Positions 1 through 55,133 of a stretch of 64,000 bases of DNA are shown piece by piece. The position numbers and the translations under genes are program-made. Each line of letters starts with the position of its first letter. The first letter of the stretch is position 1. The DNA is taken from NCBI GenBank assembly GCA_014281115.1, contig JACONQ010000003.1, forward strand, positions 3,162,001 through 3,226,000, given 5' to 3'. The notes beneath the pieces were generated by a model. It ran no database searches and was not told the origin of the DNA. It was given only the letters and a program-made list of their open reading frames with translations. The stretch is from Laburnicola sp. R22_1 (Eukaryota > Ascomycota > Dothideomycetes > Pleosporales > Didymosphaeriaceae).

Positions 1-1080
1 CCACGTCCTTCTGCAGCAGCCGCGCTCGATCGCGGTCGCTTCTGCGAACTTCATCGACGTATTTTGAGATATTCATGCGAGGGGCCCTCTGCTGGATAAA
101 CACTGCTGCCTGCGTAAGGGCAAGCGGCATGAAATCGAGGGCGAGTATCAGTTCCATAGCCTCGTCCTCTTTAGCAACAGATCTGAGCTTCTTTCGGAGA
201 AGGGCCAGCGCGTTGTCCCTGTTCATTGGCCTCACTTCGATGATGCTAGTAAAGTCACCTGTGAGTTTGTACGCTACATCTCGGCTCCGTGAGGTGAAAA
301 GAATCGAACCGTTCGGCGACTGTGGTAGAAAGTCTGAGAGTAGCTCCGTCGGTTGATCCCTGCTGCCAATTGCACAGCTCTGTGCTATATCCTGAAAAAA
401 GACGCTCGCATCGTCAGCATTGTCGACCACCATCAGCCAGCGTCCGTTGCGCTTGTCGCATAGCCAGCTGCGCACGAGCCGCAGGGTGTCCGCCTTGGGG
501 TCGTCCCAGCCGCCCATCTTCGTCGCCTCGGCGATCCTACGATACCCTTCCTCGAACCTCGCTCGCGTGCCTGCGTGCACCCAGAACACCCACGTCTCCG
601 GCGAGGCCTCCTCGACGTGATAGCAGTGCTCGATGGCGAGCTGCGACTTTCTGCGTCTGCATTAGTCGCGAGTACTACTAGCCTAGCCGTCCTCTCCACA
701 TACCCTACCCCGCCCAGCCCTACAAGTGCGACGCGCGACGCTGGTGCCGAGCATTTCTCGCGTATCTCGTCGAGCAGTGTTCCGCGGTCGACGAAGTCAG
801 GGTCGCGGCGGAACGGGATGACGCACGAAGGCTTCGGTGGGTTCTCTGGTCGTTCTGGTGGGGCTACCGTTAGCGCTGGCTCGGACCCGGTGCCAGATCT
901 CCAGACCGGCGATATTTGGGCCACAACGGCAGCAGCGACTTGCCTGGGTAGTAGTTGTTTGTTTGGGTCTCTGTCTGGCATCAGTGTGGTGCTTGGTGCG
1001 CAAGGTGTAAGTGACGTACCGATATTGATATCTCTCTGGGCCAGGTTACCGATGTGTGCGTTATTATAGAGAGGAGGCAT
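1..1080 (-). CDS. NB-ARC NLR receptor, 5' part (cut by left window edge)
   Basis: Minus-strand NLR-type receptor. Exon 1 is 1080..704 and exon 2 is 650..<1. The intron 703..651 has a GTATGT donor and CAG acceptor and splits the P-loop glycine codon. After splicing the P-loop reads GLGGVGKSQLAIE. Downstream are Walker B-like WLMVVDNADD, an RNBS-B-like SILFTSRSRD and a GLPL-like MPLALTQAA, the order expected of an NB-ARC domain. The first ~25 residues (NNAHIGNLAQRDINIGT) form a short Asn/Gly motif that matches the C-terminus of the neighbouring hydrolase, so this receptor probably signals by templating that effector. It is a diverged paralogue, in inverted orientation, of the receptor at 2841-6296. 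The repeat domain lies outside the window; TPR is expected by homology but not seen. Confidence 0.85.
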
Positions 1081-1390
1081 CTTAGGCTGGTTCTCTTGTG
1101 TGCGCTGTTGCGGTGAACGTGGTAGGGGATTAGGCTGCTTTAATGTGCCTGCTTGTTCTGCCTACCCCGCAGCAGCTGAGCATCGGCGCGTAGGGAACAG
1201 AGACGAAGCCAGGCTGGATGCTCTTTGTGGAGGGCTGAGCCGTTCTATTAATAGTCCATAGGCTGCGATGAACAGTATATAACTAGTGTTTCCTGATGGT
1301 GAAAGGTACAGGTCAGCTTAAGCTGTTTCGACAAACTCGACCTTCCAGTACACCTAGACATGGCGCCGTACGGGTTAGCTACCTGGCACG
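1081..1390. promoter_or_regulatory. Intergenic promoter, left arm of inverted promoter pair
   Basis: The stretch from the NLR start at 1080 to about 1254 aligns, reverse-complemented, with about 2667-2840 upstream of the second NLR. Shared exact blocks include GCTGAGCCGTTCTATTAATAG at 1234-1254 (its complement is at 2667-2687) and CAGCTGAGCATCGGCGCGTAG, with roughly 80-85% identity by eye. The rest, 1255-1390, is the leader of the hydrolase gene on the plus strand. Conservation of non-coding DNA suggests recent duplication or shared control elements. Confidence 0.6.
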
Positions 1391-2525
1391 ATGGGGAGAA
1401 AGCAGAAGTGGAGTGAGGGCTGTGACAATATAGACATGCTGTTCTATCCGGCTAACGCAAATAGCATCGTCTTCGTCCACGGTCTTCGCGGAGGAAGAGA
1501 GTCGACGTGGACGAAGGATGGGGTGGTCTGGCCGAAAGAATTGCTGTCCAAGGATATTCCCAAAAGTCGAATCCTAAGCTTCGGCTACGACTCTGAGATT
1601 GTACACTCCGACACGGCAGAAGTCACGCAAGGCAGTCTTACAGACGATGCACGGCAGCTATGCAGCCTCCTCGATGATGCGCGTAACCAGACAAGCACGG
1701 TAAGATGCTCTGCTATAGCCTACTACGATTTTGAACTATCTTTGCGGTGCTGTCAATACTAACTGTTCCCTCAGGCTGATCGTCCTATCATCGTGATTGG
1801 CCACAGCCTCGGCGGCCTCGTCCTCGCACAAGTGCTGTATGGTGGCAACGGGGCTACAGAAGGAGACAGCATCTACTCGATAGCGCAGCACATCAAAGGA
1901 ATGATATTCCTTGGTACACCCTTCTTTGGCTCCAAGATTGCCGGGTGGGGTGAGATCGTGCGGCGTATATACAGCCTCGTCCAGAAAACGGACCAGAACA
2001 CCTTGAAGCATCTCAAGTTAGATTCAGAGGAGCTCAAGGATCTTCGACTCGGCTTCCCAGACGTGATCCGTAAGCGGAATCAAACTTCAGACAAGGTCGT
2101 CGTGGTCTTCTTTTTTGAGAAGAAGATGACTTACAAAGTGGTACGTTAGACGCAAGGCTCTAGCACCAGTTACTAATGAGAAGATGAAGTGGGTCGTCAA
2201 GGAAGAAGATGCGTCCTATCCCGGAGTCGGAGAAATCTTGCCCATGCAGGCAAACCATCTCGACATCTGCAAGTTTGACGATGCAGAAGACGATGGATAC
2301 AAGCAAGTGAGGGCGAAGATCAAGCAAGCTATGGAGGCGACTGATATCACTGAAACAAGCACGGTAAGAACAGCCCCGTTTCATGATTCAGTGAGCAAAG
2401 TCATGGTAATGCGAGAACAGGGTAACAAAACCTACATTGTCAACAACGACGGCACGATCACGAATCTCGCTCAGGGCGATATGAGAATCGAGCAACAGAC
2501 TAACAACTATGGGCAGACCAAGTAG
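1391..2525 (+). CDS. SesB-like alpha/beta hydrolase (putative NLR effector) with C-terminal amyloid-type motif
   Basis: Three exons, 1391..1699, 1775..2140 and 2184..2525, give 338 aa. Intron 1 is GTAAGA...TCAG. Intron 2 is GTACGT...TACTAATGAGAAG, and its acceptor is the less certain one. The N-terminus IVFVHGLRGG and the nucleophile elbow GHSLGGL (Gly-x-Ser-x-Gly) with FLGTPFFGS mark the serine lipase/esterase fold used as effector or N-terminal domain in fungal NLR systems (SesB type). The C-terminus, after about residue 300, carries NNDGTITNLAQGDMRIEQQ followed by TNNYGQTK. This parallels the N-terminal motifs of both flanking NLRs. The inferred role is a membrane- or lipid-acting cell-death effector triggered by receptor-templated amyloid folding. 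No signal peptide is evident, so it is likely cytosolic. The reading frame is intact. Confidence 0.85.
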
Positions 2526-2840: not shown

Positions 2841-5800
2841 ATGCTTCCCATCAACAACTATGGCAATATCGGTAACATGGCTGAGAGGATCAACATCGGT
2901 ACGCCGCTTGCACTATGCGCACCCAACCCTCCGGTGCTAACGTCAGACAGAGGCCCAGACGAACAACTACTATCCAGGCAAGTAGCTGCCATTACAGCTT
3001 GTACCTCGCGGGAGGATCTGAGGACTTGCCGCAGGGTCCGAGCCAGCGCTAACGGCAGCCCCACCAGAGCGGCCAGAAACTCCACCGCGCCCATCCGCCG
3101 CGATACCCTTTCCCCGCGATGCCGACTTCGTCGAGCGAGGGACGATACTCGATGAGGTTCGCCGGCAATGCGTTGAGGCAGGCTCGTGGACTGCGCTCGT
3201 CGGCCTTGGCGGTGTAGGGTGAGTCGGGATACTTGATTCGTCGTACCCATGGGCTAACGTCCGCGAAGCAAGTCGCAGCTCGCCATCGAGTATGCGTACC
3301 AGACGCGCGAGCGATCGGACGAGACGTGGGTGCTCTGGGTGCACGCCAGCAATGCAGCGAGGTTCGAGCAGAGCTATCGCGACATAGCCGACCGCGTCAA
3401 GATCTTCGGCCGGAAGGATCCGAAGGCGGACATTTTTGAGCTGGTGCACGACTGGCTGTGCAGTAGCAAGGATCCGTGGCTGCTCGTGCTCGACAACGTA
3501 GACGATGCTCGCTTTCTTGTGCATGTCCCGCTTGCCCAGCGAGACGAGGCGGCCAACTCGAGGAGCGCTCCCAAGCCGCTGCGCTCTTACATTCCACACA
3601 GCGAGCGCGGCTCGGTCCTCGTCACGACACGTAACCGAGACGCGGCGCTAAAGCTTGTGGAGAAGCGCTGCATGATCAGCGTAGAGCCTATGAACGAGGT
3701 GCAGGCCAGTGCGCTCTTTAGGAAGAAGCTTGAAGAGGTTGAGGACCGTGTGGGCATCGACGAACTCACCGCGGCGCTAGAGTACATGCCGCTCGCCATC
3801 GTGCAGGCGGCGGCTTACATTGCCCGGAAAGCACCTCGCTGCTCCGTGCAGCAGTACCTCGCAGACTTCCGAAGGAGCGACCGCAAAAGAACGACTCTCC
3901 TCGACAGCGAGGCAGGACAGCTTCGTCGCGACTATGAGGCGAAGAACTCGATCATCATCACGTGGCAGATCTCTTTCGACTACATCCGGGAGACACGGCC
4001 ATCCGCCGCCGGCTTGCTCTCGCTGATGAGCTTCTTTGACCGGCAAGGAATACCCGAGGAGCTGCTTCGGGCTCAGCCAGGAGAGGAACCCGGCCAGCAC
4101 GAGCAGCACGAGCAGCACGAGCGCGACAGCAAGCGACAGGCCTGGGAGGATGAAGACAGCGCGTCCCAGCCCAGTGCGAGCGACGATGGGTTTGAAGACG
4201 ACGTGCAGACGTTGCGCGATTACTCGTTCATCTCGGCGAACACAGATGGGGCAAGCTTTGGAATGCACGGACTGGTGCAGCTTGCGACGCGGAAATGGCT
4301 GCAAGTTCACGATGAACTGGAGCAATGGAAGCAGCGTTTCATTAGCAACCTCTGTGCCGCTTTTCCAACGGGAAATCACGAGAATTGGGCGGTGTGCCAG
4401 AGGCTGTTCGCGCACGCCAAATCTGCTGCGGAACAGCGGCCAGAGAGGGAAGACTCGCTGAGGGAGTGGGCTTCATTACTATACAAGGCGGCATGGTATG
4501 CTTTGCTAATAGGAAGCTGGGTTGAAGCAGAAGCGATGTCACTGCAATCGGTGAAGACGAGGAAGAAGATACTAGGGCCAGAGCACGAAGAGACGCTGTG
4601 GAGCATGGCAATGGTAGGCGATGCGTATCGGATTAGGGGGCGATGGAAAGAGGCCGAAGCGCTGGAGGTGCAAGTGATGGAGACGAGCAAGATGAAGCTC
4701 GGAGCAGACCATCCCGACACGCTGACCAGCATGGCCAACCTGGCGTCGACGTACAGGAACCAAGGCCGGTGGGACGAAGCCGAAGCGCTACACGTGCAAG
4801 TGATGGAGACTCGCAAGACGAAGCTCGGAGCAGACCATCCCTTGACGCTGACCAGCATGGCCAACCTCGCGTCGACGTACTGGAACCAAGGCCGGTGGGA
4901 CGAAGCCGAAGCGCTGCAGGTGCAAGTGATGGAGACGAGCAAGACGAAGCTCGGAGCAGACCATCCCGACACGCTGACCAGCATGGCCAACCTGGCGTCG
5001 ACGTACAGGAACCAAGGCCGGTGGGACAAAGCCGAAGCGCTAGACGTGCAAGTGATGGAGACGAAGCTCGGAGCAGACCATCCCGACACGCTGACCAGCA
5101 TGGCCAACCTGGGTGTTACGTATAGTGTACAAGGCAAAGAAGATAAAGCCGAGCCGCTGAAAATGCAAGTGATGGAGACTCGCAAGACGAAGCTCGGAGC
5201 AGACCATCCCGATACGCTGACCAACATGGCCAACCTGGGTGTTACGTATAGTGTACAAGGCAAAGAAGATAAAGCCGAGCCACTGAAAATGCAAGTGATG
5301 GAGACTCGCAAGACGAAGCTCGGAGCAGACCATCCCTCGACGCTGACCAGCATGGCCAACCTCGCGTCGACGTACAGGAACCAAGGCCGGTGGCCAGAAG
5401 CCGAAGCGCTAGACGTGCAAGTGATGGAGACGAGCAAGACGAAGCTCGGAACAGACCATCCCGACACGCTGACCAGCATGGCCAACCTCGCGTCGACGTA
5501 CAGGAACCAAGGCCGGTGGCCAGAAGCCGAAGCGCTAGACGTGCAAGTGATGGAGACGAGCAAGACGAAGCTCGGAACAGACCATCCCGACACGCTGACC
5601 AGCATGGCCAACCTCGCGTCGACGTACTGGAACCAAGGCCGGTGGGACGAAGCCGAAGCGCTGTTTGTGCAAGTGATGGAGACTCGCAAGACGAAGCTCG
5701 GAGCAGACCATCCCGACACGCTGACCAGCATGGCCAACCTCGCGTCGACGTACAGGAACCAAGGCCGGTGGCCAGAAGCCGAAGCGCTAGACGTGCAAGT

Positions 5801-6296
5801 GATGGAGACGAGCAAGACGAAGCTCGGAACAGACCATCCCGACACGCTGACCAGCATGGCCAACCTCGCGTCGACGTACTGGAACCAAGGCCGGTGGGAC
5901 GAAGCCGAAGCGCTGTTTGTGCAAGTGATGGAGACGAGCAAGACGAAGCTCGGAGCAGACCATCCCTTGACGCTGACTAGCATGGCCAACCTCGCGTCGA
6001 CGTACAGGAACCAAGGCCGGTGGGCGGAAGCCGAAGCGCTAGACGTGCAAGTGATGGAGACTCGCAAGACGAAGCTCGGAGCAGACCATCCCTTGACGCT
6101 GACTAGCATGAACAACCTCGCGTTTACGCTGAAGGCTCAAGGTTTTACAAGCAGAGCGATTTCCCTTATGGAAGACTGCTGTAGGATAGGGTCAGTAGTA
6201 TTTAACCCCCAACATCCTAACTTCCTATCGTTTTGCGAATCTCTAGCAGCATGGCAGCTAGAAGCTATGGATCTTGGCGAGCAGAGCAACTCCTAG
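2841..6296 (+). CDS. NB-ARC/TPR NLR receptor with near-identical TPR repeats
   Basis: Exon 1 (2841..3218) and exon 2 (3269..6296) join across GTGAGT...GAAG to give GLGGVGKSQLAIE, a P-loop at the same place as in the paralogue. Walker B-like WLLVLDNVDD, SVLVTTRNRD and MPLAIVQAA follow, then a winged-helix-like region and, from about 4577, 13 tetratricopeptide units of 42 aa (kinesin-light-chain style). Eleven of these are nearly identical. The N-terminal NNYGNIGNMAERINIGT matches the SesB-like hydrolase motif. Oddity: relative to the paralogue there is one extra base between about 2982 and 3035, so the frame changes. It may be a frameshift, or a 34-nt micro-intron at 3001..3034 (GTACCT...GCAG) that restores phase and would give 1123 aa. 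The role is a non-self sensor, with ligand binding inferred at the TPR array. Confidence 0.85.
4577..6160 (+). repeat. 126-bp TPR coding tandem repeat array
   Basis: The array holds 13 units of 126 bp (42 aa) inside the NLR gene. Unit 4 is shortened in frame to 39 aa, and the first and last units are degenerate. Units differ mainly at a few codons: R/W/S after TY, D/P/A/K before EAEAL, D/H/Q/F/K after EAL, S/R before KTK, A/T before DHP, and D/L/S before TLT. High DNA identity between units indicates concerted evolution by unequal exchange or conversion. Confidence 0.9.
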
Positions 6297-7819
6297 CAAG
6301 GCAGAGGTATAGCAAGTAGCTAGATAGTCTCCAAGGCCTAGTAACGCTCGGTTGAACCCATTTGCCAAAGCGCAGGGCTTCGATTTCCAGGGCCTTCACC
6401 CTCTGCCTTATCTTACATCCTTCCCGTCACATTGTCTTTCCCTCTAAAAAGCTGAAACTAGCGCTCGTTGGGGCTTAGTCTAGGAATCGGCGCCGGTGGA
6501 CTCGAGAAGCATAGGGATAGGCTTGATCAGGTCTTTTGTTCGGGAAGCAGAGAGGAGAACGGCGGAGCTTGTGAGCGTGGCAATGCTATGTCGTAGGTAT
6601 TACTGTGCGTTGGACCGCGTCCTAGGATATACAAAGATGGCTGGTTTCGACGCTAGAAGCGCGTTAGCTAAACAAGCATAGCTTATTAACTACTGCTCCT
6701 AATCAAGTCGGTCTTCATGATAATCCGAACACTTAGCCATGGTTATGCGCCACAGATATTCTTAGACGCCGATCCAAGATAAGGATAGCGTGATGCTGGC
6801 TACAAAAAGATACAAGTGCCCTGCCACGTGGGAGAGTTTTAAGGCTCCTCCTTTCCTGCCCGATGGAACGCCTGGCATGCACACTCTTAGGGTCGGCGTG
6901 CCTTGAAATCCTACTACTTGAAGGCAGAGTTGGCGCGTTTACGTGAGGCGTCTATACCAGAGGTCCAGTGCGAAAGTAACGTCCCTCCCTAAGTCGCGCA
7001 AAACCCCCCGTACCGCAAAATATGCGAGGTACTTTGCTGTCAAGCAAGAATAAGTCTACGCACACATCAAAATACTCTATGTCTTTCTAAGGAATGTGTA
7101 CTTTAGCCACTTGCGTATATAGCGCAGCCTCCCTACTAATAAATTACATTTGCATAGTTGCCTCCGCGCCCAATAGACAAGGTGCTTTCTTTCGTCGCAT
7201 AAAGATGTCTCTCTGCTACAGCCGCACTAATTACCTTGTTTGTGCTACTACGATGCGAAGGTACATGTCTTATACAAGCGTCAGAACCTTTTGACAATGT
7301 TGCGCAGTCATATTAGCCTTTTGCGTCGATGTGGCGGGGACATTCATGCGTCCTTGCCACGCTGATTGGTACTTCTGATCGAAGCGCGAACTATATCTAG
7401 CTAGCGCGAAATAGCTCTTACAGACTACATAATCACGCCAACGTTATTTACATTTGTCATCTGGAACGGCCAGCTTGTGGCTGTAAGGCTTATAGGCCCT
7501 ATAGTTAGCCTAAGTGTCCGCGCCATAGTGGGCTGTGCAATCAGCCGCAACCCGCCTGCGATGGCCTGTTCTTACCTACTCCAGCCCAAACCCACTGACA
7601 CAGCAATAGAACTCGCGCACTCTCGCGCCGCATCGCCATCGGATTTGATCCTTAGGTATAGCTCTGCGTCCTCTCTCTTCCCATGCTGGCTAACCTTAGT
7701 AGCCTAGGACTAAAGTGCTCAACAAGCCGCTGCCTCGTCTCTTCGGCTAGGCTGCCGCGTCTGATGCCGACCGAGATCCGTTCCTACCGCTTGCCCCCGT
7801 CCAGCTCTTATGTGAAACA
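6297..7819. other. Gene-poor spacer
   Basis: Only short open frames without recognisable domains or convincing splice structure are present. No transposon ends, tRNA or long repeats were seen. The last few hundred bases are presumably the promoter of the HET-NACHT-WD40 gene. Confidence 0.5.
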
Positions 7820-12304: not shown

Positions 12305-13130
12305 AGCCTTTAGTATTTCTTTATTTTTTATTATCTTATTTTCTCTATTCCTCTATTTCATAGAGGGGGCTGGGGATTAAGGTGTATATATACTTCCCTA
12401 AGTTGCATGCCGAAGCTTCGAGCATCCTCTAGATCAAGTCGCAAGCCTTTCATGTAGAATCACGTGCTTGATATTTGCCACCAGAAATAGAGCGCAATAT
12501 ACCATCATCCAATCTTATTCCATCGCTGTCTGACGGCGCGATAATATAGCTTAGTAAAAGGACCCTGCTGGCCCAGTCCATGTCGGCGGTAGTGGTCCAA
12601 CGAGCGAACAGCTGGCGGCAACGAACACCAGCCCGCCATCCAAAAATAGCCTCTTAGTCGTTAGACATTTGTGGAATAGCGCGAACCTTCGCTGGTTAAG
12701 CATAGAATAAAATACAATACGGTAATAATTTCCAGCGATACACCACGTAAGCTCGCTAGATCGGCCCGCGAAAATCATGCTTAGGACCCCCTCTGCGCGG
12801 ATAAATCCGGATTGCATCATACTACGGATCGCGTATCTGCAAAGCTCTGCAATACTTCCTTACACTATAGAGCTATCGTTTGGGACCCCCGAACTCTAGC
12901 ATTTATAGATAGCCGTCTTATTGTAGGGATATAAACTGGGTGCGGTTTAAGAGGCCTTAAAAGGGAAGACTAAAAGCATAAGTAAGAGCGCTGTAATTTT
13001 TTCGCCACTCACCATCAGATTAAGGAGAATTCTTAGAAGAAGAGGATTGCCATTGATGCGATTTAATTTACTGTGGGGTGGGGGGTGGAGATGCTTTTAT
13101 AGGAAATCTTTTGCGGCACGGGGTGCTTTG
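12305..13130. other. Spacer, no recognisable gene
   Basis: AT-rich sequence follows the WD40 gene stop. An 89-codon minus-strand frame at 12551-12820 has no recognisable domain and is not called. The part near 13040-13130 lies directly behind the truncated transposase and may be its eroded remainder. Confidence 0.4.
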
Positions 13131-13132
13131 CG

Positions 13133-13582
13133 TTACGCAGGGGGGGACGTTAGGTCGACTTTGTGGCGTCGTATAAATCGGTCAACCCAGTTTTTGCCAG
13201 CAGGCTTCCCAGCTATTTCTGATGCGAAATTTCGTATCATCTCCTTTGTAGGGGGTAATCCTCGTTCGCAAAGGCCATCAATATATTGTAGAAGCTCAGT
13301 TTCCTGTTGGGAGTTGAGGAGGCGCTGGCTGTCGGCCAGCGCGTCGCGCGTGCCCTGCACCCTGCGATGCCGGCGCGACAACGTATTGCGATCGCAGCCA
13401 TATTTTTGAGCGACTTTGGTGTAATTAGGCTTCTCAGAGATGCTCAGCGAGCTCAAATAGTCAAGAGCAGCACTTAATTCGGCCATATTCGTTGTATAGA
13501 GCGTTGCAAAAGGTGCCGAAGTTGGGCTGTTGAGGCGGAAAATCGATCGTCCGGTGGGGCCGATCGTCAGGTGATGAAACAC
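13133..13582 (-). pseudogene. Truncated pogo/Fot1-like transposase, DNA-binding N-terminus
   Basis: The probable start is at 13486 (MAELSAALDYL). The first helix-turn-helix (psq/CENP-B type) reads YTKVAQKYGCDRNTLSRRHR. A CENP-B/Tc5-type second DNA-binding region follows (ETELLQYIDGLCERGLPP, EMIRNFASEIAG, KNWVDRFIRRH). The frame stops right after this point and the DDE catalytic domain is missing, so this is a truncated Tc1/mariner-superfamily element of the pogo/Fot1 kind. No clear terminal repeats were found around it. It sits beside the inverted-repeat unit that carries the HET-ankyrin gene. Confidence 0.75.
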
Positions 13583-41994: not shown

Positions 41995-42206
41995 CATTAT
42001 TATTACTCAAGGTAGCATTACAGTAACGTCAGTCTATTCTATATTTATTTCTATTATATTTTAGTACACTAGCTAGAATTATATTGTGGAAAGTAGTATA
42101 GATAGAATATTTAGCTGTAAAGTACCAATCGTAAAACATTCCCTATAAGAAGGCTCTTATAATAGATTTATAGATACTTTTAGCTATATAGGTTTATTTT
42201 ACGCGA

Positions 42207-44471: not shown

Positions 44472-44520
44472 CTATGTTCGTAACCATATAAGACGAGATA
44501 GAACATTGAATATATCGGCT

Positions 44521-47474
44521 ATGGCTTCCCCAAATAATAGTAGTTTACTTTATGCTTTTTATGATAACGAAGATAATTTTCTTATGCTGGGTAAAGGCCT
44601 AGGAAGAGTAGTCAGTCAACTCAGCAGCCCGTCAACCCAATACCCTGGCATAGTATTGCTTGTTGGCCGGGGAAACCGGAATATTCTAAAATATACCTCT
44701 GATATCACCAATCAAACATCTAGAGCCGTAGCAGATATCGGTTTAGTAAAATCGACGGTTAACGACAAGAGCCCGCTACTCTTAGCCACAGTAGATCTAA
44801 ACACGGCATACAGTGGATTCGATCCTCGAAATAAACGTCATAGTCGCGAGTATCACCAAGTGTCGTGGTTAAGTAAAGCTTCAGACTTAGGAACTACTCG
44901 ACTGGTTGATACTGTATTTGGTCGTCTTATTCTCAAATTTACTGACGTACTATGCCTATTCTTAGATGACTTCATATCTTCTACCGAAGCGCACGATGTT
45001 CTCACTCGTTGGTCAAACATTGCTTCGCAATCCGCAACATCCTGGAGACCACGGATCATCTTGGTCGGTGGCCACCAGCTTAATATGGCCAGTTGGGGCC
45101 AGCTGTCTGGGTTCGAAGATGTAAAACAGTTACGGGCTCTTAGTTCGAACACAGCACTAAACATTGCGCTACGGAACACTGTCTCCATAGTACAAAAACA
45201 CCGAAGAGAGTGCAGTATGCTGTTTGTAGCAAATCACACGAGAGCTTTCTTTGAAGCTGCCTTGCGCCATGTCGCAAAACATTCACACGACTTTGATTTT
45301 GTCTTAGCGACGCGCATCAACAATGAGGTTGACCACACGTTGGGTTCAAATTTGCGATCGTTCCTTGAACTGTGTGCGCAGAATTCAATGAGCCAACAGT
45401 TCGCATTTCGATACATTGCCTCCGCGTTGGTAATGGATAGCTGTCCCCCTGATATGCATCGTAGGTCAATCTCTCTAGCTGTAGCGTAACTGACAAATAA
45501 CAGGATTTCCCCCTGACTTGGTGTTTGATACCCTCTACTATCCGTGCTCATTTAAAGCTTTCGCGCAGCAGAGTGTTCCGCCGGTTGAAGCATCTAAGCT
45601 TCTAAAAGCAAAATATGCTAAAATCTACAGCTCCGTGGGACCCACTATGGCGGCCCAGCAGCATAAGGAAGTAATTGACTCATTTGAAGTGGATTGGGCT
45701 GGGTTCAAGACGAACCGAGTATGCCTAGTCTGTTTGAGGCGGAAGCCAGAGCATGCATTCCAATGCGGTCACGCTCTTTGCGATGTTTGCGTATGCATAT
45801 TTGGAGCTCAGGTGGAAAATAGAGAGTACAGCTATCAGTTGTCGACATGCATAATCTGTCGAACACGCTGTAAACTGACTGTACAGCTTAAACCTCCAAC
45901 CGCTGGGTCTAGGCTACTAGTTCTAGACGGAGGTGGCATTCGAGGCATATTCAGTATCCTAGCCATTACCGCTTTCGACTCCGTTCGAAAGCTTCCATAC
46001 CCGATCTACGATGATTTCGACCTTGCACTAGGCACAAGCTCCGGAGGCCTGATTGCTCTAATGATGTTCGTTCGCCGGACGATGTTGGAATGCCTCGAAC
46101 TATTCGAGACCTTTGCGACCCAAGTCTTTTCCAAGAGGAACGAACATTTCCTGGCCAATGTGTACGGCTTTATTTCATCTCTTATAACTGATAGCAGGTA
46201 CGGCGCAAGCCAAATAGAATCCTACATGAAAGAAGCATACGGACCCCGAACCCCGTTTTTTAGTGGCCTTGGACACCCTTCAGGGGTTTCAAGCACCAAA
46301 TTTGCTGTTACAACTATGAGTGTTTCCACCTCTAGATTATGCATCCTATCAAGCTACAATGGACAAATGGAAAGATGCGGTGTGTTTTACCTAATTAAAA
46401 ATTTAACAGAAGTATCTAACGTGTGAAGGTTACAAACACCATCGTCCTCTACGTGGGGATCATGAGGTCCTAGTGTGCGATGCGTACGATACCATCCTAT
46501 GATTATAGAGCTCAGATTTCTGATTCCCCCGCAGTGCAAGAGCTACATCGGCTGCTCCCTCTTACTTCCCCGCCAAATTCATTCCTGGGCCTGGCTATCT
46601 ACAAGATGGGGGCGCGGGGAAGCACAATAATCCTATTGATCCTGCCGAGTGGGAGTCGAAAGCCATTTGGAACACGGATCCGGACTTTGTCATATCTATC
46701 GGTACGGGTTACGCCAATACTCCCCAACAGTCCCCTGTGACACTAAACCGACTGCGATTTCGGGACCGGTTTCTCATCAGGTTGTTTCGACTTTTTAGCG
46801 CCATGCTAAATGCACAGAGCAGCTGGAATGATCACTTGAATGGGGTTAGTGAAGAGCGTCGCGATAATTATTTTCGCATCAACATGTCTTTAGATGAAGA
46901 ACCCGAGCTAGATGACTTTATGAAGATCCCTGAACTGAAATCAAGATCCATCATGTATCTAGATAGCTTTGATTTCCGCCCAATGGTTCAGGCCCTCCTC
47001 TCAGCTTCATTCTTCTTCGAGCTGGATGGCAGCCCAGTGCTGGTACGAAATAATCTCAAGTGTACGGGTGCAATCCGCTGTAGAAGTGTGAACAGCCACG
47101 CCATGGTAGCTAGAATACTGAGCGAATATCCAACCGCAAGTTTTAGTACTAGCACAGGAGATGGGTTCGGTCGTATAGATCCCAATCAAGATCTCTGTCC
47201 TAATTGCGGTCAATATAGTAAAAAGGTTTCGTTTACGGTCTATTATTATGACCAGACCATTAGTATATACATGAAGTTAAATCAGTTATGGAAACGTAGA
47301 ATTAGCGGCTTCCCGCAAAGTATCTCTAGTTTGGCAGAAAAGCAGGTATTGCAAGCGGATTTTGGTAGGGCAGATCATGGCAGCCGAAAAAGTAGCTGTA
47401 GCTGTCTACGGAAAAGAAAACGCCGCACTCTTCCCTTTCTCAGACAAAAGAAGAGGCAAGGGGTAGTGGACTAA
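44521..47474 (+). CDS. RING-like/patatin-like phospholipase
   Basis: Exons 44521..45460, 45504..46381, 46410..46483 and 46535..47474 keep phase throughout (943 aa); the 28-nt third gap is unusually short, so that boundary is doubtful. Residues 1-~330 form a domain with LLVGRGNRN and IILVGGHQL strands that I cannot name. A C3HC4-like zinc site follows (CLVC, FQCGHALCDVCVC, CIICRTRC). The patatin domain has DGGGIRGIFSI (oxyanion hole), GTSSGG (nucleophile Ser) and a catalytic DGG in GYLQDGGAGKHNNP, preceded by AARATSAAPSYF. All catalytic elements are present. The predicted role is lipid acyl hydrolase, possibly an immune or incompatibility effector. A second CxxC site and a basic tail end the protein. 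Confidence 0.78.
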
Positions 47475-47885
47475 GACAGGGTAGAAAAGTAATTATAAGC
47501 GCGTACATTAATCCAAACTTGCAAATGCACCACTTGTTCTAAATGTGCTCGCTCTCGCAGCAGAAATACAGAGTAGTAATAGCCTTATTTGCAAGTATTA
47601 TATATGCAGCATCTGCAGGTAGTATAATCTATACCTACCGTCGCGGTGCAAGTCATAAGTCTGGGATATTTACCTTGACAGTAAGCCGAGGCTATCCAAC
47701 TCCATCTATCTAAATATTCATTTATCTAGCCTACCGTAGTACAAACCCAGTCATGGCATCTATATACAATAGGAACGTCAGAATACTGCCTCACGCACGA
47801 CAGTAAAGTCCAGTGTAACGATCTACCCACCCAACTTAGATATGTCGATCCGCTATACCCAAGAAAGAACCATTATATCCTCCGA
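47475..47885. other. Spacer/promoter
   Basis: No gene seen. Holds the 5' region of the small membrane protein gene. Confidence 0.4.
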
Positions 47886-48245
47886 ATGATACAACCAAGT
47901 ATCCTGTATAGTGCTTTGACATTAGGACTAGTCACTGGAATCTCCAGCCTGACGCTCTTCTGCATATGGATGCTTGATCCCCAGGCTCATCGCATTCGTG
48001 GACTCCAAATCGTTGCATCTTGCATTTCTTGTATCTGCTTTACCATTCCGTTGGTACTTATCAATCTTCTCAGTCGACGTCTCTCTGCGATATCATCTTT
48101 ATCCGTCGCTCGTGGTCCGCTATTCTTGCTTTCCTCTATATCAGTCTGTTGTTCCGCTGTCCTCGTTATTATAGTATCAATATTTTCAGCTGATCGGACT
48201 GGGATGCAAAAGGACCGGTCAATCGGACGAATGAAAAATATTTAG
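47886..48245 (+). CDS. Small multi-pass membrane protein
   Basis: Single exon of 119 aa with about four hydrophobic segments (ILYSALTLGLVTGISSLTLF, IVASCISCICFTIPLVLINL, GPLFLLSSISVCCSAVLVII) and a short basic tail. No family is recognised. It converges on the next gene, 39 bp away. Confidence 0.45.
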   Translation: MIQPSILYSALTLGLVTGISSLTLFCIWMLDPQAHRIRGLQIVASCISCICFTIPLVLINLLSRRLSAISSLSVARGPLFLLSSISVCCSAVLVIIVSIFSADRTGMQKDRSIGRMKNI

Positions 48246-48284
48246 CTAGTTCTTTGACAAGAATTACATACACACAAAGTCTAT

Positions 48285-49116
48285 TTACATATGTGAAACC
48301 CAATCTCCAACATCGTCCCACAAACTTTCGGTGATGCTTATCTCGGGTAGCACAGGCGCTATATTATCCCATTCAGAATCTGCCTCAAAGGTCTCCCTGC
48401 CATCTGAGTGCGACGTGGTAAAAGGTGCATCCTCAGCAGCATCACCACAATCCACTTCGCCATAGTTGCTATGGATATCTTGCACTGTTCCAAACTCGAC
48501 ATCTCGGCGTTGGGAGCCTGCCACACTTTGGAAGCCTTGGAACCAGTCGACTATAGAATCGGTCGTGTGAACGGTTGCACTGGCGCCGTATCCATCGCTG
48601 CTCCTCCGAACGCAGGCCTCAGGCGTTGGGTGGTTTTGCCGTCTCGTGTGAGCATCTTCACTTCTATCCTCATCCGAATCAAGTCGAATTTGCTCTTGGG
48701 AGTGTTTAATTAAAAATATCAGGCTTCCAATTCCGAATACCGCGCCCGCAACCGAGGTGATCATGACGAATCCAGTGGCTTGCTCCGATAAAGTCGAACT
48801 AGTAGCTGTAACGATTGCTGGAGCATTCGGGCAGCGTGTAGAGGTCGGTGGGGGCGGTTCCTTAGTGGGCAGGAATGTGGCAATAGTGGGATTAACTCCC
48901 AATGAGGTTTCTGGAATAGAAACAGACGAAGTAGAATAACATCCGCCCGTTGCCGTCGCTCCCGGATGATGTATATTCGTGGTTCTGTTTAGCCATGGGC
49001 GGACTAGAAAACAGTTAGCGCGACACCTGCTTTCCGGTATCCGTGCACCACGTACCTAGTCGAGCATTGCACCACCCACAAAGCACGAAGTAACATCCTA
49101 TACGAGAGAAACGCAT
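48285..49116 (-). CDS. Single-pass type I membrane protein with signal peptide
   Basis: Exon 1 49116..49056 and exon 2 49003..48285 join in phase (GTACGT...TTCTAG) to give 259 aa. The N-terminal signal-like MRFSRIGCYFVLCGWCNA is followed by a Thr/Ser/Pro-rich ectodomain with a few Cys. A helix (FVMITSVAGAVFGIGSLIFL) and a basic-then-acidic cytoplasmic tail complete it. The architecture resembles fungal cell-wall-sensor or Mid2-like proteins, but no named domain is visible. Confidence 0.55.
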
Positions 49117-49494
49117 CGCGACAGGTATGCTTGGAAGATATATTCACGTTACACCGACCTCTTCAGCATGTACATATGTATCATTTCGTGTTGCGGCGAG
49201 GCTTGCAGGCCCAATACGCCTTTGGTTAATAAATTTAGTGAAATGTTACGGCACAGTGGGTGTGCCTTGTCGCTGGCGCGTAGTGGCAAACCATGGAGAT
49301 TGCTGCGGCGCCTGCGCAGGGTGCCATATGCCAAGGAACTAGCGGAGCTGCCGCAACAGGGCGTGATTACCAACGATCGATTTGGGTGTCTTCGCAAGGC
49401 GCACGCGCTCATGCTGACGGTATTTCATGGGGGCTTTATTGAAAGGCTTGACTACCATATCAGGTAGGTAGCGCCTGAATCACATTCTAACTAA

Positions 49495-49959
49495 CTATGT
49501 AGCCGCAGCGTTCCCACCATTGGGAGCGTCGCCTTGAACCGCCACAGGCAATAGCTCCGTAACTGTTTGATGGACCTGATGACACCATGGCAACAGTTTT
49601 AGATAGTTTCGCTGCAAACTGGCAATATCCTTCGTCACTTCGATCAAAGACTTATCCATCTCATTTGACCATCTGCCCACGCTCTCCATTAATTGTGAGT
49701 GCATCTTTTCCATCCTATCCTTGATTTCTGTCACATTGAATTGGAGTTGGTCGACACGCGATATGAGGTCTGACAGCTGCTGCATTTCGGGGCTAGAGAT
49801 GTACGCGCTTGCGACCTGGTTGAGTGGGAGGAAAGAGTTTGTTTGTTCTGCATACTCCCACCCCATGCCAAGGTCCCCTTCCGTTTCTGGGATCGGCGGT
49901 AGGTCGGTTTGGAACGCCATTGATTCAGAACCCCAAGCGCAATCTGGGAAGAACTCCAT
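49495..49959 (-). CDS. Small coiled-coil protein
   Basis: Intact 154-aa frame starting MEFFPDCAWGSESMAF. A heptad-rich segment spans about residues 60-120 (LISRVDQLQFNVTEIKDRME, KSLIEVTKDIASLQRNYLKL). The rest is Pro/Gly/Asn-rich. An upstream exon cannot be excluded. Function unknown. Confidence 0.5.
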   Translation of the reverse strand: MEFFPDCAWGSESMAFQTDLPPIPETEGDLGMGWEYAEQTNSFLPLNQVASAYISSPEMQQLSDLISRVDQLQFNVTEIKDRMEKMHSQLMESVGRWSNEMDKSLIEVTKDIASLQRNYLKLLPWCHQVHQTVTELLPVAVQGDAPNGGNAAAT

Positions 49960-50216
49960 GTTGATTTGAGGTGGCGTAGGAACACTTAAGAGGATGATTT
50001 CGTCTGCGATTTGTGATGGTTACCATAGGCCGGTGTAAAAGTTGAGCTTACATATCTGCGGCGTACCTACCTGTTTACGAGGCCTCCGAGACTTCCGAGA
50101 CTTCCGCGGTTTCCGCCGGGTACGACGGAATCGGGCGGAATGGGCGGCAACAAAAGCTTTGCCTTCGCCACGTTATAGTGTTGCGGCTGTGGAATACGGC
50201 AACCCTACGCTCCACC

Positions 50217-50597
50217 ATGGCTCCCCGACGCAGACTTGCATATACGCCCGAAGAAGAAAATACATTGGCAGAGATTATCAAAACACGACCCTCCGCTCCG
50301 TGGCCTGTTATACGAAAGGCGTACAATTCTGCCAATCCGCAAAGACACAGAAGTGTCCCAGCTCTACGCAAGAAGTGGAAAAGCATGCAAAAAGCAAAAT
50401 TGCTTCCAGCATCGCAGGGTAGCCCCAACACTGCAGCTTCGGAGCATGAGAAAGAGCCGTTGTCCACCAGTCATGATGTGGACTCTTCTTTCCTCAGTGG
50501 CTTTCCATCGCGCGCATCAAGCCCTGCGGGTTCAGGTTTCTTCACCGAAGATCATGTTGAACTGAAGGACGAATCGATGGTGCATGTGAGTAACTAG
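50217..50597 (+). CDS. Myb/SANT-like DNA-binding protein
   Basis: Start chosen at ATG 50217 (MAPRRRLAYTPEEENTLAEI). Residues ~8-60 fit a Myb/SANT-like helix-turn-helix with spaced Trp residues (APWPVIRKAYNSANPQRHRS, LRKKWKSMQ). A Ser-rich, disordered C-terminus follows. A GTGAGT donor at the 3' end (about 50588) may splice to AATCAG near 50651, changing only the last residues. About 126 aa. Such small regulators are common in accessory fungal regions. Confidence 0.55.
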   Translation: MAPRRRLAYTPEEENTLAEIIKTRPSAPWPVIRKAYNSANPQRHRSVPALRKKWKSMQKAKLLPASQGSPNTAASEHEKEPLSTSHDVDSSFLSGFPSRASSPAGSGFFTEDHVELKDESMVHVSN

Positions 50598-50985
50598 CTC
50601 AGCGCATTGTTCCTTGGCTGACTATGGCTTTGGCACATCGTTCTTCAATCAGTGGGATTAGTTTTCCTGGTGATATCAGGTTTCCTGGCGATCTGGATTA
50701 TTCGCATTTGGAAGGAAGATCCTTATCTATGGTAGACATCACCAACCGCCACGGTATCTAGCAGATGTTTCAATGTCATTCAGAATAATATATGCAGTTC
50801 TGTACATGTTTTCCACAATTAAGGATTCTTTAACAAGTTCTCCACCTGACTAACGCGCAGTAATGCCTATTCCGTACTGTAGTAAGGCGTATCCCATTCT
50901 ATATTAGCAGAAACCTACTGCGCGTTAGAAAACTCGACACTAGTTGTTCCGGCTATCACTAGGAATAGATCACGCGCGTTTAACT

Positions 50986-51712
50986 ATGGCCCACCCCCTG
51001 CTCACCGCAATATTTCATACTCATAAACCGTTCTCCGGAGATGCCGCTCTAGCCCAAAGACATGTTCTCCGCTCCCTCCGAAATGCCGTCATGTTTTTGA
51101 AGTACTCTCTTAGATTTAAAGGCGGCGCTGTCCCTGCACTACAGCGTATTACTTCACCAATTCAACAATTTGCATATATGGAACCTAACCAGAACCAAGA
51201 GTTGGTACGATCAATATTTATTTCTAAGTCTGTTCGAGTTAATGACAAGGCCTCAGTCGACCCAGGATGAACCACTCTCCTACTACCAACAAGTCCTGAG
51301 ACAGCTGGATCTCCACACGAAATGGAGTATCCAAAGACTTGCAGTGGAGTTTGATGCTGCTACCCAAAGTAACATAGCGCTTCAGGCGGAACTTAATAGG
51401 GCTGCACAAAACATTATGCTCCTACAGAGGGAGCTTGACAAGGCGCGCAGCCATTCGGAGACTCTTAAGCAAGAGTGTAACGGTCTATTCAAAGAGGTTG
51501 AAAGGCTGGAAAAGCTGGCCGATAATACGAGTGAACAACGTGACGCTGCGAAAACGCAGCTAGTGGCGATCACGAAAGAGAATGATGAGAACGTTAAGAA
51601 ATTGAAGGCGGCCATGGAAGAAAACGCAAGCTACAAGGCTATTATTGAATTGAGCAATGATGCTTCTGGAGCAAGTGGGAACAGGAGATCTCGCCGCCTT
51701 CGTGAGATTTAG
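50986..51712 (+). CDS. Coiled-coil protein, frame broken near 51.1 kb
   Basis: The N-terminal frame from 50986 (MAHPLLTAIFHTHKPFSGDA, VLRSLRNAVMFLKYSL) and the second frame (SWYDQYLFLSLFELMTRPQS, then a long coiled coil QSNIALQAELNRAAQNIMLL to EENASYKAII) differ by one base. The switch lies between about 51100 and 51170, and no acceptable intron resolves it. The C-terminus is basic (NRRSRRLREI). Function unknown. Confidence 0.45.
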
Positions 51713-51732
51713 CTAGTACAAAAGGCTCATTT

Positions 51733-52804
51733 TTAATCATCCAGACTCCCTTCATCTGCTTGTATGCTTTTGATGGATCCTTCAGCATTGGCTAGGCCAG
51801 GAAATGCAAAAACGGAAGTCTTGGAAGCTAGACATGCCAGTGACTGAGCTGGCAACGCATTTTTAAGAAACCCATGCTAATAAGGTTAGTGAGCACGATA
51901 GAGACAGCGGTAGGTCAAAAACCTGTTTTAAATCATCAAGCTCTACTCCGTCGCGCATTCCATGCCGCACGAAGTCGTCCATTTCCTCATCCGCCAATGC
52001 TGGTGATATAGGTTCTGTTATCCTTAACAGCAGCTGCACCAGTACCTTAGCTTGCGGGGGCGGCTTTTCCGGCCCTATGTGGATGTATCGATCGAATCCT
52101 ACCTGTATTACGTCATCCAGTCACCTTAATGCATTACAATACTTACCTATCTTAATACGTCCGTCCCAGCTAGAAACAAACACGTCTGATGGTAGGATGG
52201 CGTCGAAGTGGCATCCTAATCGGTTCAGTGCCTCTATGCCTCGTAGGGTCTATCTAGTCAATATTGAATGCAGACGCAGGAATGTACATACTTCCTTAAG
52301 TATGGTTCTTATATCTCGGAGAACTGCAGGCCTCCAGATAGCTGTGGATAGAGGGATGCCAGGTCGATCGTATACGCAGTATAGCCACCCGTTCCATTCA
52401 AACGCCTGGATAAAATTCAAAGCGTACGGTGAGTTTCTATCCAGTTTGAAAACAGCTTTGGGGATGATTTTTCTTATGATAACAGGACAGCTATCTTCTC
52501 TAGACTCGGCCAAACAATAACTACGGCCGTCTCCCGGGATGATTTCGTACACGAACTCGTAGTAGACATCAGGATCTTTGTGCTGAGGAACAACTGGCTT
52601 AAGAAGAGCATACAATGCTGGCTTTTTATGTATTGTGTTTTGCCTAGTTTTGTTCTGCTGTACTGGATAATTATTAATGCTCTTTGGAGTGTGAGTGGAA
52701 TCAGTGTTGAAATTTGATGCGCCATTCACATCTGGAGATGCCGGTTTATTTAGACGCCCTTGACCAGGCGAAAGGGAAAATCTAGTGTTCCTATCGGGAG
52801 CCAT
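51733..52804 (-). CDS. Protein-kinase-like pseudokinase
   Basis: Four exons, 52804..52292, 52249..52147, 52098..51923 and 51843..51733, splice in phase to 300 aa (MAPDRNTRFSLSPGQG start). Introns begin GTATGT, GTAAGT and GTTTTT. N-lobe: YYEFVYEIIPGDGRSYCLAE and the VAIK-like VIIRKI. Hinge: WNGWLYCVYDRPGIPLS. C-lobe: LRGIEALNRLGCHFDAILPS then DVFVSSWDGRIKIGFD. The HRD triad appears as HFD and the DFG motif is lost, so catalysis is unlikely. Its start is 82 bp from a divergent coiled-coil gene, suggesting shared control. Confidence 0.65.
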
Positions 52805-52886
52805 CGCGTGCACAAGAACCGGGGGTGGCACACTACTTATAGCTTTGGTAAACCCTTTAGTCCCAGGGATCACCTTTCTGTCGAAA
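52805..52886. promoter_or_regulatory. 82-bp divergent promoter
   Basis: The stretch between the pseudokinase start (minus, 52804) and the coiled-coil gene start (plus, 52887) is only 82 bp and must hold control elements for both. The alternative upstream starts of either gene would overlap the other. Confidence 0.5.
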
Positions 52887-53378
52887 ATGCCACGCGCAAG
52901 GAAAGCACTCGAGCCCTCGAAATTAAGTGGAGTAGAAGTGAACGAAATTGATGAGTTCGTACGAAGGCACGGTGGGACCACTTTGGCTCTGGAACTGACT
53001 CGTGCTCGAACGAAAGAGTCGAAGCGCGAGGAAAACATTATACAGCACATCCACTACCTGTCACGTACAAATGGAGAGCTACGCGCGGAGCTTTCCTTCT
53101 ACAGGCATTGCTACACGAACTCAGAGCGTTTCAAAGATGTAATTGAAGCATATGCACGAGATTTGCTCCACGAGTGCATCATTGGGTTAGTCGCAGAGCC
53201 TGACTTGGAGACAATACGATCTATATCAAGTGGCATTACCAGGAAGTTGAAGACTTCCAGAACAAGCTATCTCAGGCATTTGAAGAATTTGCTGCGCCGT
53301 ATGAATCTAAGCAAATGCAGCCATTGCCTCATGTATGATGGGGATCTAGTCCGCGGCATTGCAAAGACATACTTCTAG
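52887..53378 (+). CDS. Coiled-coil protein, divergent partner of pseudokinase
   Basis: 163 aa from MPRARKALEPSKLSGVEVNE. The central part reads HIHYLSRTNGELRAELSFYR and is helical/coiled-coil. The C-terminus is basic with a CxxC (LKNLLRRMNLSKCSHC). The frame is intact and single-exon. Function not recognised; the position suggests joint regulation with the pseudokinase. Confidence 0.5.
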   Translation: MPRARKALEPSKLSGVEVNEIDEFVRRHGGTTLALELTRARTKESKREENIIQHIHYLSRTNGELRAELSFYRHCYTNSERFKDVIEAYARDLLHECIIGLVAEPDLETIRSISSGITRKLKTSRTSYLRHLKNLLRRMNLSKCSHCLMYDGDLVRGIAKTYF

Positions 53379-53510
53379 GTCGTCTTGTTGCGGCATAAGT
53401 GGGCAAAAATGGTTCGAAATCAAGCTCAATCAACCTTATATCTCTGTTCATTACATTTGCAACCGTTTTTCTAATTCCATCGCGAATAGTTTCATTAGCA
53501 CACACTGTGC

Positions 53511-55133
53511 CTAGTTAGCGTCGAAATAGACTGGATCCATTTTCATACCCGATACTGCCACCTTGCCCCTTCGTTCACGGAGGATATCTTTGATGATTTC
53601 GGAGTAATCCGGTTTGCCCTGGATCTCTACAATCCTTGCTCCCTTGCGCTCTTGTGTTTGCGGCAAGTCATCCCGATAAATATACATGTCCAACACCTGA
53701 TGTATTAGAAAGTGTAGGCAGAAGGCGTAGGTATACATACATTGCTCCCAGACAACGCTGGTCGTTTTCCAGGGTAATCCAGGCTTGCCGTTGCTCCTCT
53801 CTGTGTTTGGCCTTTTGGAATCTCTATGTTGGAAACTTCTGGAGCTGGCGTATACTGTTGTTTATCTTTCTTTAAGAGCTCATCCATGAATTTACGAGCA
53901 AGGTGATGCTGTTCGCCGCTTTCCATATGCCAAACAAATACAATTTCTCGGGTGTTGGTATTCAAAGAATCCTGTTCCTCGATTAAATGTCTCAGATAAG
54001 ACAGATGCCCAGTTATGCCTATCCCACTTGCGAACAATACGACCGTGCCATATTGCCGAAAGTTAAAACATGAACCATAGGGACCTTCAATCCATGCAGT
54101 GTGGCTGTTGTGCATGTTCGAAGCGAGACCCGATAGTTGTCGTGTGAAACCTCTTTGTGGCCACACGTGAAGTTCTATACTGTTCGATAGTATAGGGGAT
54201 GCTACCACGAAGGGATGTCTTTGAAAGCAACTGAATAATCCAGCGTTGGCCAAAGTAAGGTAAACATATTGACCAGGACGTACTCTCCACGGCCTGGCAG
54301 GTGTAATTTCGAGTTTGATGCCTTCTCCAGTCATTTGCAGCATGGCTATTGTTCTGTGTCTGTGCCAAGATAAGTTCCGATAAAGCAAGAGACAATATCG
54401 ACATGCTAGACTAAGAAACCAAAGAGACGTGCTAAGTACCATGCGATATCTGGTAAGTCTGTTGGGGCTCTCTACATGAAACCAGAGTAAAATGCTTATA
54501 CACAATGCACTTGTTAAATGAACGAGGCGGAATATCTCGTATATACGTCGCCGGACTGGTTTTATAGAGGTACACACGAGTGCAATTAGACTAAATGCCA
54601 CCTGTTCCATTAGATACAAATTTTCATTTTGGTAGCATTACGTACAACAGTCCCAGTGATGAATACTAGATCTATTTTCCAGTTCGCTAGAATTAATTCT
54701 AAAGATACATGAAGTAGCCCCTCCAGTATAACAATAGAAGCAATAGCTATATGACCTTTCAGATATGTTCTGAGTGAGATCTTTAGATAGTGGGCGATAA
54801 GGTCTGCACTTGGAAGTAGCATTGCCAGGTTTGTTAGAAAAAGGATGCAGATCGTATACTTAATTCCTTTCGAGACTGTACTCCCCAGCCTATGCAAATG
54901 CCATTCGCAGTAAACAAGAGAATGTAAAGAAGGACATCCCCGATAGAACATTGTAGCCCAAGGGCTTCCAGGAACGTTACTCGGGTATAACGCAGATATT
55001 TTAGGCTTAGGTATGTGGTCCATAAAGTAAACGAACGAGATATGTAATAGCTAAGCCATCTTATTGCAATAAGCGCGATGAGGCCAAAGAAGGCTACTAG
55101 ATACCAGAAGCCAAAGTTTAAGTCGTCCGCCAT
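53511..55133 (-). CDS. Ferric reductase-type transmembrane oxidoreductase (FRE), one frameshift
   Basis: Exons 55133..54646, 54601..53741 and 53696..53511 join in phase (GTACGT...AACAG, GTATGT...CATCAG). Membrane helices carry the haem-ligand histidines expected for a ferric reductase domain (LKGHIAIASIVILEGLLHVS, RLVHLTSALCISILLWFHVE). FAD-binding RPGQYVYLTLA with HPF and NAD(P)-binding VVLFASGIGITGHLSYL follow, with a C-terminal GKVAVSGMKMDP. One frame change lies at about 54886-54900, between ICIGWGVQS and KGIKYTICILFL. Start MADDLNFGFWYL is preferred over Met 55175. The family moves electrons across the plasma membrane to reduce Fe(III)/Cu(II). FREs are a recurrent Starship cargo class. 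Confidence 0.75.

What the first reader, a model, noticed from the sequence alone, without database searches (positions are those of the whole stretch)
1..55133. Gene set of a Starship-type giant mobile element: NLRs, DUF3723, patatin-like phospholipase and ferric reductase together
The sequence shows three NLR/STAND-type genes (1-1080, 2841-6296, 7820-12304), a DUF3723 gene (42207-44471), a patatin-like phospholipase (44521-47474) and a ferric reductase (53511-55133) within 55 kb. These four accessory classes are those described as recurrent cargo of Starship elements, whose captain is a DUF3435 tyrosine recombinase. A C2H2-tailed relic at about 21 kb may come from a DUF3435-type gene, and a Myb/SANT gene is also present. 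No intact captain is in the window, so element ends are unknown. The inference is that this is Starship interior or a Starship-derived graveyard.
Basis: partly seen in the sequence, partly recalled or inferred. Interest (0 to 1): 0.9.

Follow-up and report, generated by a model that had tools for sequence, protein, structure and literature searches.

The report
Immune-receptor transposons nested inside fungal Starships
This stretch of a filamentous fungus's genome lies inside a giant mobile element (a Starship), and one of its immune-receptor genes turns out to be the cargo of its own much smaller jumping element, which may help explain how such genes spread and reshuffle.

Summary
The window is C20:3162001-3226000 of a 63.9 Mb fungal genome. 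A stop-free DUF3435 captain lies about 9.6 kb to its left. From window 18860 rightwards the DNA is co-linear with three other large elements, E2-E4, whose homology begins at the same base (within one) with a captain about 1.1 kb inside, at a TTAC(N7)A-like site (one mismatch in E3).

Less expected: the HET-NACHT-WD40 receptor at 7820-12304 fills a 6.2-kb transposon (6977-13152) with imperfect 47-bp inverted repeats and a TA target. A genome scan found seven complete copies. Three insertions tested each have an empty site: N1 in a Fot1-like element, N2 in sister Starships, and E3's copy at window 50941. Between two lineages the outer parts are 93-99% identical but HET and NACHT stretches fall to 57-92%, suggesting exchange of receptor cores within a constant shell.

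Open: Starship right ends, E1's own left end, the mobilising transposase, conspecific empty sites. N1 and N2 share a frameshift.

The parts
1..1161 (-). 5' part of a TPR-type NLR gene that continues to the left of the window (C20:3159929)
2841..6296 (+). TPR-type NLR gene with a 126-bp repeat array
6919..6978 (-). piece of a Fot1-like transposase gene left of the N1 insertion; 59 of 60 bases match two uninterrupted copies (C7, C12)
6977..13152 (+). N1: NLR transposon, TA to TA
6977..7023 (+). left terminal inverted repeat of N1 (47 nt, 81% complementary to the right one)
13106..13152 (-). right terminal inverted repeat of N1
7820..12304 (+). HET-NACHT-WD40 receptor gene inside N1 (13 WD40 repeats; frameshifted between HET and NACHT in this copy)
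13151..13587 (-). N-terminal part of the Fot1-like transposase gene (HTH_Tnp_Tc5) with that element's inverted repeat at 13540-13587
13762..17334 (-). HET-ankyrin gene framed by 111-nt inverted repeats (13762-13872, 17224-17334); mobility not shown
18860..64000 (+). Starship body shared with E2, E3 and E4; continues to the right of the window
21102..21464 (+). captain-tail relic (C2H2-type tail)
42207..44471 (-). DUF3723 gene
44521..47474 (+). patatin-like phospholipase gene, divergent from the DUF3723 gene
50046..50597 (+). ORF with Myb/SANT-like domain
50941..50942 (.). TA empty site of the NLR transposon copy that sits in sister element E3 (C8:1645334-1649963)

Best explanation
The window lies inside a Starship (E1), one of at least four related elements in a filamentous ascomycete. 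Its captain, a DUF3435 tyrosine recombinase at C20:3151065-3152405, is inferred to move the whole element (not shown). Nested in E1 is an independent class of mobile unit: a cut-and-paste transposon (4.6-6.2 kb in five complete copies, 7.1 and 7.9 kb in two that carry extra DNA) with imperfect 47-bp inverted repeats and a TA target. In the four copies read in full, its one recognised gene is a HET-NACHT-WD40 immune receptor. It has jumped into Starship bodies and into a Fot1-like element (shown by filled and empty sites). The mobilising enzyme is inferred to be a Tc1/mariner-Fot1-type transposase acting in trans. Between two lineages of this transposon the outer parts stay nearly constant while HET and NACHT stretches differ strongly and WD40 repeat number varies (shown); I read this as exchange of receptor cores within a mobile shell (inferred).
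For: Captain 9.6 kb left of the window, three PF11917 segments without stops. Body co-linear with E2, E3, E4. Common left boundary with a captain about 1.1 kb inside. E2's left end sits in a dispersed repeat; 5 of 5 fetched un-inserted copies (of 33 flank-matching rows) read TTACTATATATA, fitting TTAC(N7)A (motif from passages of PMC12153272). NLR transposon: inverted repeats; 14 of 15 fetched end pieces and 4 of 4 ends of N1/N2 carry the TA-plus-TIR. Genome scan: 22 ends at <=3 mismatches against 0 for the reversed control; 19 at <=2, 14 of which form seven complete elements. Empty sites: N2 absent base-exactly in E3, with the same TA junction in E4; E3's copy absent at window 50941; N1's site uninterrupted in 2 of 2 Fot1-like copies fetched. 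Mosaic identity. HET-NACHT dN/dS 0.23-0.32 between lineages.
Against: No right end of any of the four Starships was found, nor E1's own left end; homology still ran on at the edge of what I could read. About 28 kb of NLR genes and transposons separate E1's captain from the shared body, so that it belongs to the same element is inferred from position, orientation and relatedness. No transposase with these TIRs was identified. N1 and N2 share a frameshift between HET and NACHT and C1's WD40 part lies in two frames, so several copies may not make a full-length receptor. Within the recent pair C1-C8 constraint looks weak (dN/dS 0.42 or 0.71 by method). E2's N2 site holds 9 extra bases. The copies on C1, C6, C10 and C12 are in no Starship that I mapped.
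Confidence: 0.9

Rival explanations
1. The NLR units spread by segmental duplication or ectopic recombination, not by transposition; the repeats at their ends are incidental.
For: The genome is rich in repeats, and WD40 arrays and flanking repeats could seed recombination.
Against: Identical termini next to TA in 14 of 15 end pieces with unrelated flanks; single-TA empty sites for three insertions; 0 hits for the reversed pattern.
Confidence: 0.04
2. The window is a Starship-derived graveyard: the shared body is an immobile remnant, and the captain at C20:3151065 belongs to a separate neighbouring element.
For: 28 kb of other transposons and NLR genes lie between captain and body; E1's captain is only 46-49% identical in protein to the main captains of E2-E4; captain-tail relic in the body; no right end found.
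Against: The captain is stop-free and correctly oriented; its closest match among the loci compared is the truncated second captain beside the body in E2-E4 (73% over 168 aa; captains on C2, C11, C12, C22 reach 67-69%); sister copies are 92-99% identical in most body blocks, so the family moved recently.
Confidence: 0.3
3. The region is an ordinary NLR-rich, fast-evolving compartment with no Starship.
For: NLR clusters and transposons are common in fungal genomes (PMC12258605, passages).
Against: Co-linear multi-copy body of at least 80 kb with a common left boundary and captain at the edge.
Confidence: 0.02

Closest known systems
Starship giant transposons (DUF3435 captain; accessory NLR, patatin, ferric reductase, DUF3723)
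   Same: Captain close to the left boundary of the sister copies, TTAC(N7)A-like target, DUF3723, patatin, ferric reductase and NLR genes, large size, several similar copies.
   Different: Right ends and element-level empty site not found; at least one NLR is cargo of a smaller nested transposon; E1 carries a different captain lineage from the main captains of E2-E4.
ToxhAT nested in the Starships Sanctuary and Horizon
   Same: A small inverted-repeat transposon with a gene as cargo nested inside a Starship (passages of PMC12506042 and PMC9594970).
   Different: There the cargo is an effector gene in a 14-kb hAT-type element (abstract start); here it is an immune receptor filling a TA-target element with seven complete copies in one genome.
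HNWD genes of Podospora anserina (het-d, het-e, het-r)
   Same: HET-NACHT-WD40 architecture with highly similar WD40 repeats and repeat-number variation (passages of PMC12222747 and PMC1805685).
   Different: 'Inverted repeat' and 'target site' do not occur in the main text of either paper; one pseudogene there is noted next to a transposon relic.
Fot1/pogo-type (Tc1/mariner superfamily) transposons
   Same: TA target and short TIRs (recalled as the superfamily's marks); a Fot1-like element with HTH_Tnp_Tc5 and DDE_1 pieces is present here.
   Different: No transposase recognised in the four NLR transposon copies read in full; the local Fot1-like element has different TIRs.

Membership tests
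[quoted passage not shown]
   For E2-E4 the first PF11917 segment lies about 1.1 kb inside the common left boundary. For E1 the captain is present but its own left end was not found.
Starship | Target site of the TTAC(N7)A kind at the 5' end (one of several target kinds in the family) | tested here: met
   E2 TTACTCTCTATA, E4 TTACTATCTATA, E3 TTCCTACCTATA with one mismatch; 5 of 5 fetched un-inserted repeat copies TTACTATATATA. Short and AT-rich, so consistent rather than decisive; not tested for E1.
Starship | Accessory genes DUF3723, patatin-like phospholipase, ferric reductase, NLR | tested here: met
   list of accessory classes from passages of PMC12506042
Starship | Direct or inverted repeats at both ends and a clean empty site | tested here: inconclusive
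   Left boundary found for E2-E4; no right end for any of the four; no relatives held.
TA-target TIR DNA transposon (the NLR unit) | Terminal inverted repeats shared by the copies | tested here: met
TA-target TIR DNA transposon (the NLR unit) | TA target duplication with empty sites | tested here: met
   Three insertions tested, each with at least one single-TA empty site
TA-target TIR DNA transposon (the NLR unit) | Own transposase | tested here: not met
   ORF lists of N1, N2, C1 and C8 (plus strand >=120 aa, minus strand >=250 aa) show the receptor and long antisense frames on the minus strand, which were not domain-searched; no transposase recognised. Hence called non-autonomous.
HNWD (HET-NACHT-WD40) NLR | HET, NACHT and near-identical WD40 repeats in one gene | tested here: met
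   82% identity over 99% of the HET-NACHT query to a Byssothecium circinans WD40 repeat-like protein. The full-length frame is not intact in N1 and N2.

The most novel reading that the evidence does not exclude
Some fungal NLR immune receptors are themselves transposon families: a TA-target inverted-repeat shell carries a HET-NACHT-WD40 receptor, exchanges receptor cores between copies inside a constant shell, and uses Starships as long-distance vehicles. NLRs counted as Starship accessory genes would then in part be hitch-hiking receptor transposons.
Probability: 0.45. Interest if true: 0.8.

Novelty: new variant of a known kind. Interest (0 to 1): 0.62.

Why it matters
NLRs are listed as recurrent Starship accessory genes, and why they ride there is unclear. 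Here a receptor gene of the het-e type is shown, with filled and empty sites, to move as the cargo of a small cut-and-paste transposon that sits both inside and outside the mapped Starships. That gives a concrete mechanism for dispersal and shuffling of fungal self/non-self receptors, and a simple mark (the TIRs) to look for in other genomes.

Tried and rejected
Right end of the Starship: E1/E3 breaks at C20:3228683 and C20:3237350 proved to be insertions in E3; the E1 break at C20:3245106 is followed by another TIR-like sequence in E1 while E2, E4 and C23 continue alike. The right end stays open. HET-ankyrin unit (111-nt inverted repeats) as a further receptor transposon: stretches fetched near its relatives in E2, C25 and C26 do not carry those repeats (end positions there were estimated), so it is only a suggestion. 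TPR-NLR pair: it sits in the same Fot1-like element, but its two junctions show no matching inverted repeats by eye and lie about 20 bases apart in the native element, so I claim nothing about its mobility. Autonomous partner: none seen among TIR ends at <=2 mismatches; three 3-mismatch ends (C5:413248, C13:1362399, C20:1991189) were set aside unread. C13:240032 is a 0.43-kb terminal fragment outside the receptor coding part. Literature: of ten searches, eight bear on NLRs and transposons and their listings and the passages opened showed no report of an NLR gene as cargo of a TIR transposon; two more were on Starships in general. The library lacks subscription papers and preprints, and PMC9156397, cited there as the Starship paper, is not held. 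Papers seen as passages only: PMC12222747, PMC1805685, PMC12134995, PMC3599309, PMC12153272, PMC9594970, PMC12258605, PMC9815663, PMC12506042.
Full report
What the window is. It lies at C20:3162001-3226000 of a fungal genome of 63.9 Mb in 26 contigs. The best named relatives of the receptor's HET-NACHT part are from Byssothecium circinans (82%) and Zopfia rhizophila (76%), followed by Periconia and Lentithecium, among the 120 listed of 7,996 hits; I infer a member of the Pleosporales.

The observation. The NACHT matches of the two TPR-type genes are below Pfam's cut-off. The gene at 1-1080 continues outside the window as a longer TPR-type gene.

Starship test. PF11917 found 88 segments, which I grouped into 41 loci within 5 kb. 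One, without stops in its three segments, lies at C20:3151065-3152405 (+), about 9.6 kb left of the window. The window's DUF3723 gene has four other near copies at 85-99%; three of the four lie about 31-37 kb from captains in the same opposing layout: C20 near 1.98-2.01 Mb (E2), C8 near 1.66-1.69 Mb (E3) and C13 near 0.30-0.33 Mb (E4). The window from 18860 onwards is co-linear with E2-E4, in blocks mostly 92-99% identical with some short ones at 76-90%, and homology continues right of the window: from the left boundary to the last matched block E2 spans 89 kb, E3 89 kb and E4 137 kb.

Left boundary. Homology among E2, E3 and E4 begins at the same base within one: C20:1974808, C8:1693237, C13:331180. 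The first captain segment lies about 1.1 kb inside. The target-like motif is a few bases inside that boundary, so the end cannot be set to the base: TTACTCTCTATA (E2), TTCCTACCTATA (E3), TTACTATCTATA (E4). E2's flank is a dispersed repeat; of 33 rows that match it I fetched five un-inserted copies, and 5 of 5 read TTACTATATATA. This fits TTAC(N7)A, called the canonical Hephaestus target in PMC12153272 (passages). The motif is AT-rich, so this is consistent, not decisive.

E1 itself. Left of window 18860 the sister copies do not match; one other locus, C21, matches from 18161 at 90%. The C-terminal part of E1's captain is 73% identical over 168 aa to a truncated second captain beside the main captain of E2-E4, 67-69% to captains on C2, C11, C12 and C22, and 46-49% to the main captains of E2-E4. 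A captain-tail relic sits at window 21102-21464. One body may have been served by two captain lineages; this is inference. E1's own left end was not found.

The receptor transposon. A search with the right flank showed a unit at C20:3238575-3243852 (N2) whose ends recur elsewhere, including the window (N1). Both ends carry inverted repeats that start TAACG; in N1 they are 47 nt and 81% complementary. Of 15 end pieces fetched from other contigs, 14 carry the repeat at the expected place, and one (C13:240358) was a wrong guess and shows another element. A genome-wide scan with up to 3 mismatches gave 11 forward and 11 reverse ends, against 0 and 0 for the reversed control. Of the 22, 19 have at most 2 mismatches: 14 form seven complete elements (C1, C3, C6, C8, C10 and two on C20), two lie 39.5 kb apart on C21, and three are single ends (C12, C13, C24). 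Older copies with more changes would be missed.

Transposition. N2 is absent base-exactly from E3; E4 has the same TA junction with changes in the wider flank; E2 lacks N2 but has 9 extra bases there. The copy inside E3 (C8:1645334-1649963) is absent from the window, where one TA remains at 50941. N1 splits a Fot1-like transposase gene; 2 of 2 fetched copies of that element (C7, C12) are uninterrupted at that TA, with 59 of 60 bases matching on the left. The Fot1-like element's inverted repeats lie at C20:3157829-3157876 and window 13540-13587 (48 bp, 94%).

Contents and evolution. I read four copies in full: N1, N2, C1 and C8. Each encodes HET-NACHT-WD40, and no transposase was recognised. 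N1 has about 13 and N2 about 6 repeats of 126 bp. C1 and C8 have an open HET-NACHT frame of 787 codons; C1's WD40 part lies in two frames; N1 and N2 share a frameshift between HET and NACHT. In 200-column windows N1 against C1 and C8 is 95-98% identical in the first 800 columns and 93-99% in the last 1.2 kb, but 78-92% over HET, 90-94% just after it, and 57-66% at window 9171-9770 within the NACHT-to-winged-helix part. HET-NACHT dS between the lineages is 0.49-0.65 and dN/dS 0.23-0.32 (748 codons, gapped codons dropped). N1-N2 rests on very few changes (one of two methods failed). C1-C8 gives 0.42 or 0.71 by method, so constraint within that recent pair looks weak. Coding DNA that diverges more than the non-coding ends, at silent sites too, is what exchange of cores would leave.

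Known and new. Starships with NLRs are known, and so is a small cargo transposon nested in a Starship (ToxhAT; passages). HNWD receptors with variable WD40 repeats are known (passages). One paper states that fungal NLRs can be carried by transposons, citing the Starship work (passage). Eight searches on NLRs and transposons in an open-licence library showed no report of an NLR gene as cargo of an inverted-repeat transposon; subscription papers and preprints are not covered, and listed papers were not read in full.

Limits. Right ends of the Starships, E1's own left end, conspecific empty sites, the mobilising transposase and expression are open. Copies on C3, C6, C10, C12, C21 and C24 were seen only as matches and end pieces.

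Noticed in passing
C20:1975914-1978288 (L015, L028) and equivalents in E3 and E4: A truncated second captain lies beside the main captain and is closer to E1's captain (73% aa over 168 aa) than the main captains are (46-49%): possible captain replacement on one Starship body.
   Followed up: partly
window 1-6296 and L046:6421-8998: Two TPR-type NLR genes lie head-to-head with a hydrolase-like ORF (1373-2525, perhaps SesB-like, recalled) between them; the outer parts are 96% identical inverted copies. NLR N-termini and the hydrolase C-terminus seem to share an NNxG-type motif by eye (amyloid signalling pair?).
   Followed up: partly
C20:3157829-3175587: Fot1-like element, about 17.8 kb end to end, whose transposase gene is split by both the TPR-NLR pair and the NLR transposon N1.
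   Followed up: partly
window 13762-17334: HET-ankyrin gene framed by 111-nt inverted repeats (96%); no empty site seen, and relatives elsewhere lack these repeats near their estimated ends.
   Followed up: partly
window 60210-61489: 17-bp AT-rich minisatellite (75.7 copies) in the shared body; related arrays of other lengths lie at the matching place in E2, E3 and E4.
   Followed up: no
C20:2036595 (L048:5595) and C20:3245140 (L051, just after 9106): Other TAAC-type TIR-like sequences inside the sister Starships, perhaps further small cargo transposons.
   Followed up: no
C20:2062094-2062105 (L080): E2's empty site for N2 holds 9 extra bases (ATTAAATTA); they do not look like the TIR end, so an excision footprint is possible but not shown.
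   Followed up: no
window 44471-44521: DUF3723 and patatin genes are divergent with a gap of about 50 bp, suggesting a shared promoter.
   Followed up: no
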